Part shown: positions 44,701-47,700 of the stretch, in pieces | Layout: each line of letters begins with the position of its first letter | Numbering within the stretch: the stretch's first letter is position 1 | Origin: Incurvaria masculella | Lineage: Eukaryota; Arthropoda; Insecta; Lepidoptera; Incurvariidae | Assembly (NCBI GenBank): GCA_946894095.1 | Contig: OX335645.2 | Span: forward strand, 12,485,001 to 12,549,000 | DNA: 64,000 nt | Direction of reading: 5' to 3' | The notes under the pieces: generated by a model | What the model was told of the DNA's origin: nothing | What the model saw: the letters and a program-made list of their open reading frames with translations, nothing else | The model's database searches: none | Position numbers and translations under genes: made by a program

Positions 44701-47700
44701 GATTTAAGGAGAGAGCATACAGTTTAATATTGGTTCAGTGGGAAGTTTCAAGCACCAAACAAGCCAATAAATGTCACCATGTTGACCGGTCAGTCTGTGG
44801 ACAAACGCTATCACAAGCGGTTGCTCCATTCTGCATAGGTGGCGCTGCTCGTAATACAATTTTAGCAAATTAATGAGATGTAAATTCGAGCTTAGATAAA
44901 GACATCGGACTTTCGTAATTTTTTTATTGTGTCGTAAACACTCTGTATTGTTCTACAACATTGCTTGACTGTGGGTGCTAACCTGAACTTCACTGAATAT
45001 TGTAAAAGTCATGATCCATTTACCTGCTCATGGGGGTGGTTGTGTGCTGATGCAGCATGATGTCGTACCGCTCGGTGGACATTCGCAAGGCGCTGCAACT
45101 GGAAGAACTGCTGGCTCGCGAGGAGTTCGAGTACATCATCGAGGAGGAGGTCGCCAAGCAGACCATCCGCACCTGGCTCGAGGGCTGCCTCAAGAAGATC
45201 CGCGCCAACAGCAGTGTAATTATTCACACGCCAAACGGGCTTTGTGTTTGTTTGCTCATGGGTTAGTCGTGGGCTGTCGCAGCATGCTGTCGCACCGTTC
45301 AATAGACATCTGCACGGTGGTACAGCTGAAGGATCTTCTGGCGCGCGAGTAGTTCGAATACATATAAGAGAAGATGTTCCCCAAGCAGACCATCTGCACC
45401 TGGAGGAAGGGCTGCCTCAACAAGATCCGCGCCAACAGCAGCGTAATTATTCACACGTCGAACTGGCTTTGTGTTTGTTTGCTCATGGGCTGGTCGTGTG
45501 CTGAAGCAGCATGCTGTCGTACCGTTCGATGGATATCCGCAAGCCGTTGTATCTGTAGGAGCTGCTACCGTGCCAGGAGTTCAAGAAAATCATCGAGGCG
45601 GAAGTCGCCAAGCAGACCATCCGCACCTGGCTCGAGGGCTGCCTCAAAAAGAGCCGCCCCAACAGCAGCGTAATTATGCACACGCCAAACCGGCTTGTGT
45701 TTGATTGCTCATGGGTTGGTCGTGTGCTGACGCAGTATGCTGTCGCACCGCTCGATGGACATCCGCAAGGCACTGCAGCTGGAGGAACTGCTGGCGCGCG
45801 AGGAGTTCGAGTACATCATTGAAGAGGACGTCGCAAAGCAGACCATCCGCACCTGGCTCGAGGGCTGCCTCAAGAAGATCCGCGCCAACAGCAGCGTAAT
45901 TATCCACATGCCGACCCACTGGCTTTGTATTTGTTTGCTCATGGGTTGGTCGTGTGCTAACGCAGCATGCTGTCGTACCGTTCGATGGACATGCGTAAGG
46001 CGCTGCAGATGGAGGAGCTGCTGGCGCGCGAGGAGTTCGAGTACATCATCGAAGAGGACGTCGCCAAGCAAACCATCCGCACCTGGCTCGAGGGCTGCCT
46101 CAAGAAGATCCGCGCCAACAGTAGCGTAACTATCCAAACGCTGACCCTCGTGAACTTTCATCCGAGCCTTGCCAAGTCTTTTTGTGTAAAGTTGTAGTTT
46201 ATGGCCCCAGGATAGTAATAGTAAGTTGGGTGCATAAAGTCTGTAAAAGGGTCATTGTACTGACCCCCATCTCAGCACATCTTAGAAGTTTCAATAAGTT
46301 TCCAAAGGCTTTTGAAAGGAATTGTGGTGAACCCAGGATCTATGCCTGTTTGTTGCCCAGGCTTCTGTATATGGGTTGGTCTGATTTTTTTGTGTAAGTT
46401 GACATCGACGGCTAATATTGTCATGATATTATCCCCACACAACACATGGAAATGAGGCCATTGTTCATTTAATGCAATGGTAAAGTCGTATCATTCATAC
46501 AGTCACGGTACAAGGGGCTTTTTGTCATTCCTAAATAAAACGTGTTTTATCACATTGTCAGGCGGACAATGTTCCGTCAGTATTCCCACCATTTTCTGTA
46601 GGCTAGCCCTGTTTGGATGCAACAACCTGTTTATGAGGCGTTTATCAAGGGATGGGATAGACTCTACAGCGGGAGCATAGATTATCAAAAAATTGTCGAT
46701 ATGCTTATATTGATCGATAAATTATTATTTGTTTTGTTTATCTTGAGGATCGAACTCAAACACATGTGTATTGTACGTAAACGAAGAAAACTTACTGATG
46801 GCATTGACGAAAATCGAGTTGTAGGTTTTTTAAGCGATGTATGGGAGCATAAAAAAATTTTAATCGATCTTGTTTGACGTTGGACAACGGTAATTATATC
46901 GACACAGAACGATAAACGATATGTTTAGCCACTTTTTATCATCTCACTGCAGAATGGTTTACCTCTGAAGGTCTTTTTTTCTGGAACTGGATATTTACTG
47001 TCACAATAAAAGCCTAACACACCACATGGAAATTAGGTGTCATGAGGACCTTCCTTTCATATATTGCTCGACATTAAACTAGGTGGAAAACATGGACAAA
47101 TGTCATTGCCGCTGCGACCTTCTTTTATTCAATGCAATGGTATCAACCGGAGCGGAACCAATGATTTCCTCCCAAACCACAATCAGCCTAAGCGGTCGAG
47201 CCGGTCATCCATCCAGGACCCAACCGCGCCCAAAGTTGCTTTGATTCGATCGTCGAATCGAACAGCAAGATGTCCCATCACTGCGCTCGCTTGTCCGTTA
47301 TGTCGTGGCCCTCTTATCTCCAAGAAAGGGAAGCCAATATTTTTTCTTTATTTTTATGAAACAGGTTGAGACCCGATTCTGCCGCTTTGGTAAAGCGATT
47401 TGAAATTTAGATTATAGTTTACAAGCTTTGACAGTCTTTGATTAAGGCGTATTGACCAACAGAGTAAGATCTTCGACTGATTGGTTCGAATAGGCGATCA
47501 AAAACCACGAGTCAGTGTACATGCACCAAGCATAGTTAGTTTGCTTACGAACTCGGGACGCGCAATAAATAGCGTGCCGTTAAATTCTTACTTGTTCTTA
47601 AAACCTATATTCATACATTTAGAAATGGCTGCGTCTTCCCCATACAAAGTAGTTTCTGTTACCGTTCCCGTGGTACCCTGCCTTTGCTGGATTGGACAGA

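What the first reader, a model, noticed from the sequence alone, without database searches (positions are those of the whole stretch)
45056..46125. Five tandem copies of one NALCN exon, arranged so that only one can be used
Seen: five copies of a 160-nt exon with splice sites, steps of 226-230 bp. Copies 1, 4 and 5 are open; copies 2 and 3 have stops. The exon enters in phase 2 and leaves in phase 0, so joining any two copies shifts the frame. Inference: copies 1, 4 and 5 form a young mutually exclusive cassette in the cytoplasmic tail of an ion channel, or are redundant duplicates caught while decaying. I know of no such cassette in NALCN.
Basis: partly seen in the sequence, partly recalled or inferred. 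Interest (0 to 1): 0.88.

Follow-up and report, generated by a model that had tools for sequence, protein, structure and literature searches.

The report
Five-copy exon cassette in leak channel
In a moth-like insect's sodium-leak-channel gene, one tail exon is repeated five times in a row; three copies look kept in working order by natural selection and two are dead, which points to a built-in choice between channel tails that still needs RNA proof.

Summary
Five 160-nt copies of one NALCN (narrow abdomen) C-terminal exon lie at 45056-46125, steps 226-230 bp, all with AG/GT borders; copies 2 and 3 carry stops. Searches of the 552-Mb assembly found no others. Copies differ pairwise by 12-43 of 160 bases, so they are no assembly echo. 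Copies 1, 4 and 5 diverged mostly silently: omega 0.04-0.09, each below 1 (0.08-0.22 and weaker for copy 5 under AT-rich frequencies); in simulations 0 (copy 4) and 1 (copy 5) of 200 runs reach the observed statistic. Copies 2 and 3 are not distinguishable from neutral. So copies 4 and 5 are not simply decaying, and silent divergence near 0.3 is not young. One-at-a-time splicing is the likeliest use. The frame argument is true but automatic for a 3n+1 exon. Other exons of this gene also have local decayed copies (two secure, two probable): local exon duplication recurs here and usually dies. Splice sites of the copies are weak. A candidate docking site pairs with the copies' flanks, moderate evidence. 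No RNA was available. Papers seen place NALCN alternative exons only in the pore.

The parts
41426..41562 (+). Upstream constant exon of NALCN; donor after 41562, phase 2
   Evidence: Protein match and GTGAGT donor
43538..43551 (+). Candidate docking site, exact complement of 45219-45232 just after copy 1's donor
   Evidence: 14-nt exact complement; mean pairing over the five copies 12.7 of 14, reached in 0 of 43 natural stretches and 1 of 150 shuffles
45056..45215 (+). Exon copy 1, open, L2M against the usual insect sequence
   Evidence: omega 0.067
45283..45442 (+). Exon copy 2, dead (TAG, TAA), splice borders kept
   Evidence: omega not distinguishable from 1
45510..45669 (+). Exon copy 3, dead (TAG), splice borders kept
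   Evidence: omega not distinguishable from 1
45736..45895 (+). Exon copy 4, open, Y4H V7M E31D
   Evidence: omega 0.042, 0 of 200 simulations reach the observed statistic
45966..46125 (+). Exon copy 5, open, V7M I9M L15M E31D
   Evidence: omega 0.085, 1 of 200 simulations reaches the observed statistic
47804..47929 (+). Downstream constant exon, phase 0; end approximate
   Evidence: Protein match [12 protein letters not shown]

Best explanation
A mutually exclusive exon cassette in the C-terminal domain of a lepidopteran NALCN/narrow-abdomen channel. Shown: one exon with its short flanks was tandemly duplicated to five; copies 1, 4 and 5 kept frame and splice borders with few replacement changes, copies 2 and 3 decayed. 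Inferred: the spliceosome joins 41562 to one of copies 1, 4 and 5 and that copy to 47804; double inclusion or skipping gives early stops and such mRNAs are lost; short introns (66-70 nt) and weak splice sites keep the copies competing. The copies change residues in and beside the C4-C5 loop and in helix C5, the surface that in mammals holds the auto-inhibitory CIH helix and carries calmodulin, so the choice would tune how readily the leak channel opens.
For: Silent over replacement changes: 1 v 4 9/4, 1 v 5 10/5, 4 v 5 8/3, against 8.8/34.2 for dead copies 2 v 3. Omega = 1 rejected for copies 1, 4 and 5 (p 3e-4, 0.002, 0.009), not for 2 or 3 (0.16, 0.20); simulations reach the observed statistic in 0 of 200 (copy 4) and 1 of 200 (copy 5). 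Single inclusion keeps the frame; double inclusion and skipping meet stops. Donors of copies 2-5 score below all 25 other donors scored in the gene, copy 1's above one of them; all five acceptors score below 24 of 25 others. Introns between copies changed less than silent or dead exon sites, 15/120 v 51/194. Docking candidate. Function of the region from PMC7712781, PMC9098444 and PMC8986805, passages.
Against: No RNA. Selection shows past translation, not mutual exclusion or regulation. Under AT-rich base frequencies copy 5's test is p 0.07 and omegas are 0.08-0.22. None of 265 proteins collected (120 best of 846, 436 and 212 matches) carries the residues of copies 4 or 5 at positions 4, 7, 9 or 31, or two copies of the exon, so no relative is known to have the cassette. 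The chain 1+2+3+4 stays open. A human-like RQERR motif of the CIH was not found in four insect proteins (motif recalled). In one search three of four flank-by-intron scans gave no docking signal beyond shuffles.
Confidence: 0.6

Rival explanations
1. Splicing noise without isoform function. Copies 1, 4 and 5 compete for the same flanking splice sites, each gets some share of transcripts, and selection merely keeps each harmless; the proteins are interchangeable.
For: Open copies differ from the usual insect sequence by only one, three and four residues; local exon duplication recurs in this gene without benefit; splice sites are weak and alike in the five copies.
Against: The changed positions 2, 4, 7, 9 and 31 are invariant in 264 of 264 other copies of the exon that I compared, and they fall near residues that contact the auto-inhibitory helix in mammals.
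Confidence: 0.2
2. Only copy 1 is used today. Copies 4 and 5 were used for a long time and lost their role recently, so they still look intact.
For: Weak splice sites; copies 2 and 3 show what loss leads to; copy 1 has the best donor of the five.
Against: Copies 4 and 5 each carry silent changes of their own with few replacements, and omega = 1 is rejected on each branch, so loss must be very recent in both.
Confidence: 0.13
3. Copies 2 and 3 are poison exons: spliced in on purpose, their stops send the mRNA to decay and set channel level.
For: They keep AG and GT borders and contain early stops.
Against: Their sequence drifts as if neutral; at this divergence four border bases can survive by chance.
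Confidence: 0.05
4. Assembly expansion of a single exon.
For: Only one assembly could be examined and no reads were available.
Against: Copies differ by 12-43 of 160 bases and their introns differ too; an artefact would give near-identical copies. All five sit on one contig, C5.
Confidence: 0.01

Closest known systems
NALCN alternative pore exons 15a/15b and 31a/31b (PMC3557258, passages read)
   Same: Same gene; tandem duplicate exons described there as mutually exclusive.
   Different: Those cover the domain II and III pores and swap E for K in the selectivity filter; the paper says insects (Drosophila) lack them. Here the exon is in the C-terminal domain and there are five copies, two of them dead.
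Tandem duplicated exons in other voltage-gated channels, such as para and CACNA1B (PMC9741552, passages read)
   Same: Exon substitution that tunes a four-domain channel.
   Different: That paper gives two known NALCN events, which by its text concern ion selectivity, and says they are not in Drosophila melanogaster; none in the C-terminal domain in the passages I saw.
Docker-selector competition, as in Dscam exon 6 (PMC6071210, abstract and Discussion read)
   Same: One upstream site complementary to a repeated element beside each copy; weak splice sites; similar introns within the cluster.
   Different: Here the pairing rests on one genome, was found after several scans, and worsens from copy 1 to copy 5; no covariation was testable.

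Membership tests
Mutually exclusive exon cassette | Tandem homologous exons of equal phase between constant exons | tested here: met
   Five 160-nt copies between 41562 and 47804
Mutually exclusive exon cassette | More than one copy maintained as coding sequence | tested here: met
   Copies 1, 4 and 5, omega below 1; weaker for copy 5 under AT-rich frequencies (p 0.07)
Mutually exclusive exon cassette | Exactly one copy in each mature mRNA | not testable with these tools
   No RNA data; double inclusion of open copies gives stops
NALCN (narrow abdomen) orthologue | Full-length similarity to NALCN | tested here: met
   The 13 best hits, Lepidoptera, are 84-86% identical over 99-100% of the joined exons; exons in order
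NALCN exon 15 or exon 31 pore cassettes | Exon covers the domain II or III selectivity filter | tested here: not met
   The exon aligns to residues 1536-1586, which lie in the C-terminal domain
Docker-selector controlled cassette | Docking site complementary to an element beside each copy | tested here: inconclusive
   43538-43551, mean pairing 12.7 of 14; 0 of 43 natural stretches, 1 of 150 shuffles; post hoc
Docker-selector controlled cassette | Pairing conserved by compensatory changes between species | not testable with these tools
   No DNA of relatives available

The most novel reading that the evidence does not exclude
An early-branching moth makes at least three NALCN channels that differ only in the calmodulin- and autoinhibitor-facing C-terminal surface, chosen by competition of repeated selector elements for one upstream RNA docking site: a regulatory-tail cassette in this channel, and a way to tune resting potential cell by cell without touching the pore.
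Probability: 0.27. Interest if true: 0.8.

Novelty: new member of a known kind. Interest (0 to 1): 0.6.

Why it matters
NALCN helps set the resting membrane potential and is a very conserved gene. Its known alternative exons, reported absent from insects in the 2013 survey (PMC3557258, passages), change the pore. A maintained cassette in the domain that binds calmodulin and the auto-inhibitory helix would be natural mutagenesis of a surface whose role in gating is being worked out. The array also shows live and dead copies side by side, in a gene whose other exons have left decayed copies, so the fate of duplicated exons can be followed in one locus.

Tried and rejected
Assembly artefact: rejected, copies differ by 12-43 of 160 bases. 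Copies elsewhere in the genome: none found by DNA or protein. Alternative last exon at copy 5: read-through gives 23 more codons before a stop, but the first AATAAA or ATTAAA after the array is at 46534, so it is not favoured. Read-through of copy 1 into VIIHTPNG.. looked at first like a C-terminal stretch of human NALCN that I recalled; rejected because the exon at 47804 carries [12 protein letters not shown] as in other Lepidoptera. Docking scans: of four flank-by-intron combinations only the downstream flanks against the upstream intron beat the 12 shuffles. Gene conversion as a mimic of selection: it would remove silent and replacement differences alike, so it does not explain the silent excess; it could explain the similar introns, and this stays open. 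Copy-specific residues in other animals: none at positions 2, 4, 7, 9 or 31 in 264 sequences; only the 120 best of 846, 436 and 212 matching proteins were listed and checked, and the database is clustered at 90%, so isoforms that differ by a few residues could be hidden. A control on other channel genes of this genome could not be run because the search machine was busy.

Full report
What is there. Five direct copies of one exon, 160 nt each, stand at 45056-45215, 45283-45442, 45510-45669, 45736-45895 and 45966-46125 on the + strand, spaced 227, 227, 226 and 230 bp. The repeated unit is the exon plus about 31 nt before it and 22-36 nt after it. Every copy is preceded by CAG and followed by GTAAT or GTAAC. 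Copies 1, 4 and 5 are open; copy 2 has TAG and TAA, copy 3 has TAG. DNA and protein searches of the 552-Mb, 31-contig assembly found these five and no others; the tool scores best candidates only.

The gene. The exon aligns with residues 1536-1586 of solved NALCN chains (E 7.9e-20). Around it, exons from 11635 to about 48979 spell a NALCN orthologue; the 13 best hits to the joined translation are Lepidoptera at 84-86% identity. The upstream exon ends at 41562 with two bases of a codon; the first base of the repeated exon (C, or T in copy 4) completes Asn either way; the downstream exon starts at 47804 in phase 0. Of 33 residues that mark the 20 lepidopteran proteins against other insects, this species shares 17, keeps the older state at 15 and has another residue at 1. 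I infer a lepidopteran outside the sampled clade, perhaps an early-branching moth; the species is not known to me.

Frame logic. Any one of copies 1, 4 and 5 keeps the frame; 1+4, 1+5, 4+5, 1+4+5, and no copy at all, end in early stops; 1+2+3+4 happens to stay open. This follows from 160 = 3n+1, so it is a consequence of duplication and not evidence of design.

Are copies 4 and 5 alive? Pairwise silent and replacement changes: 1 v 4, 9 and 4; 1 v 5, 10 and 5; 4 v 5, 8 and 3; 2 v 3, 8.8 and 34.2; omega 0.10, 0.11, 0.09 and 1.02. Pairs of one open and one dead copy give 0.31-0.55, as a mixture should. A codon model on a star tree, with base frequencies by codon position from 24 other exons and stop codons masked, gives omega 0.067, 0.425, 0.436, 0.042 and 0.085 for copies 1 to 5; omega = 1 is rejected for 1 (p 3e-4), 4 (0.002) and 5 (0.009) and not for 2 (0.16) or 3 (0.20). 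With AT-rich frequencies the omegas are 0.20, 1.70, 1.51, 0.08 and 0.22 and the p-values for 1, 4 and 5 are 0.02, 0.007 and 0.07. With 4 and 5 as sisters they are 3e-4, 0.003 and 0.016. Simulation under omega = 1 (star tree, gene frequencies) reaches the observed statistic in 0 of 200 runs for copy 4 and 1 of 200 for copy 5; copy 1 was not simulated. The eight best of 15 tree shapes lie within 1.5 log units, hence the star. Counted from the majority sequence, copies 1, 4 and 5 have 6, 5 and 5 silent changes and 2, 2 and 3 changed residues; copies 2 and 3 have 4 and 6 silent changes and 18 and 11 changed codons. Selection on protein sequence needs translation, so I conclude that copies 1, 4 and 5 have each been spliced into mRNA for much of their history. 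This is inference from divergence, not from RNA.

Age. Silent divergence among 1, 4 and 5 is 0.29-0.38, so the array is not young. With a mutation rate near 3e-9 per site per generation (recalled, rough) that is tens of millions of generations. The introns between copies have changed less: over the two independent pairs 2-3 and 4-5, 15 of 120 intron sites against 51 of 194 exon sites (all sites of 2-3, silent sites of 4-5), Fisher p 0.004 (differences counted by hand, one gap left out, choice of pairs made afterwards). Selection on intronic signals or partial homogenisation would both fit.

What the copies change. Of 265 collected proteins, 264 contain exactly one copy of the exon and one (P0020) none; none of the 264 has the copy-specific residues at positions 2, 4, 7, 9 or 31; position 15 is Met in 38, including 20 of 20 lepidopteran proteins of the first search. 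Against the usual insect sequence, copy 1 has L2M, copy 4 has Y4H, V7M, E31D, copy 5 has V7M, I9M, L15M, E31D. So no copy keeps the otherwise invariant set: constraint is strong but looser than in single-copy genes. In the mammalian channel the corresponding residues D1543 (position 8, C4-C5 loop), E1557 (22) and E1560 (25) contact the auto-inhibitory CIH helix (PMC7712781, passages); the UNC79-UNC80 pair pulls that helix away (PMC9098444, passages); K1569 (position 34) crosslinks to calmodulin (PMC8986805, passages). Positions 7 and 9 flank D1543, and 2 and 4 lie just before. I therefore expect the copies to tune gating or calmodulin response. In four insect proteins I looked for a human-like RQERR motif of the CIH and found none (motif recalled), so this step is by analogy.

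How one copy might be chosen. Donors of the five copies score 3.9, 2.3, 2.3, 2.3 and 2.3 against 3.1-9.8 for 25 other donors of the gene; acceptors score -3.3 to 1.7 against -3.6, then 1.9 to 15.6, for 25 others; one further acceptor was dropped because the site I had chosen was not AG (junctions picked by hand, some exons not included). A 14-nt stretch in the upstream intron, 43538-43551, is the exact complement of 45219-45232 just after copy 1's donor; an exact complement that long turns up for 0.6% of random and 1.6% of local 40-mers. Over the five copies its mean pairing is 12.7 of 14, reached in 0 of 43 other natural stretches and 1 of 150 shuffles. I had first scanned four flank-by-intron combinations, and the flanks are related, so I treat it as a candidate. 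Its layout is that of an upstream docker with repeated selectors, which a published model derives from duplicating one arm of a stem (PMC6071210, abstract and Discussion).

The wider habit. Other exons of this gene have same-strand degenerate copies within about 500 bp: 13738-13962 (pieces at 14179-14256 and 14267-14389; E 2e-17 and 1e-16) and 36502-36801 (36852-36948; 2e-10) are secure; 18792-18983 (18628-18768; 5e-8) and 17025-17228 (17282-17338; 6e-5) are probable, since reversed-sequence controls reached 2.5e-8 in a GC-rich exon and 4e-5 in another. In a local test 6 of 32 exons had a local match, 5 of them same-strand including the cassette, against 24 of 81 intronic windows, 15 of them with inverted matches only. 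Of the nine same-strand windows, three touch these decayed exon copies, four are the 411-bp tandem at 43545-44375 and two are one 42-nt pair. Parents under constraint make exon copies easier to see, so I claim recurrence, not a rate. Local exon duplication recurs here and usually decays, which is the proper background for copies 2 and 3 and makes the survival of 4 and 5 more telling.

Literature. The 2013 NALCN survey reports alternative exons at the domain II and III pores and says insects (Drosophila) lack them (PMC3557258, passages); a 2022 paper on tandem duplicated exons gives two known NALCN events, not in Drosophila melanogaster (PMC9741552, passages). Searches for NALCN with mutually exclusive exon (2 papers), with alternative splicing and insect (15), with exon duplication (3), and a five-term search on narrow abdomen and Lepidoptera (15 listed of 2,206) showed no C-terminal cassette in their listings; only open-licence papers are held.

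Verdict. Observation confirmed; a mutually exclusive cassette is favoured but not proven; 'young' is wrong, and 'caught while decaying' fits copies 2 and 3 only.

Noticed in passing
13738-14389: Exon for domain I followed by two degenerate same-strand pieces of itself (14179-14256, 86%; 14267-14389, 73%).
   Followed up: partly
36502-36948: Exon followed by a degenerate same-strand partial copy (36852-36948, 72%).
   Followed up: partly
18628-18983 and 17025-17338: Probable degenerate partial copies of two further exons (18628-18768 before its parent, 17282-17338 after its parent); less sure, near the level of reversed controls.
   Followed up: partly
43545-44375: Two 411-bp intron units in tandem, 99% identical, just beside the docking candidate: a recent duplication.
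   Followed up: no
45216-45282, 45443-45509, 45670-45735, 45896-45965: The short introns between copies are more alike than silent or dead exon sites (15/120 v 51/194); selection on splicing signals or partial homogenisation, undecided.
   Followed up: partly
41426-41562 and 45056-45215: The 20 lepidopteran proteins carry seven clade-marking residues in these two exons and this species has none of the seven, though it shares 17 of the other 26: a burst of change in the channel tail on the branch to the other moths and butterflies, or exon replacement there.
   Followed up: partly
24763-29081: Retrotransposon in an intron: an open 1062-aa frame (25896-29081) with reverse transcriptase, RNase H and integrase domains, in that order, after a 383-aa frame without Pfam match.
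   Followed up: no
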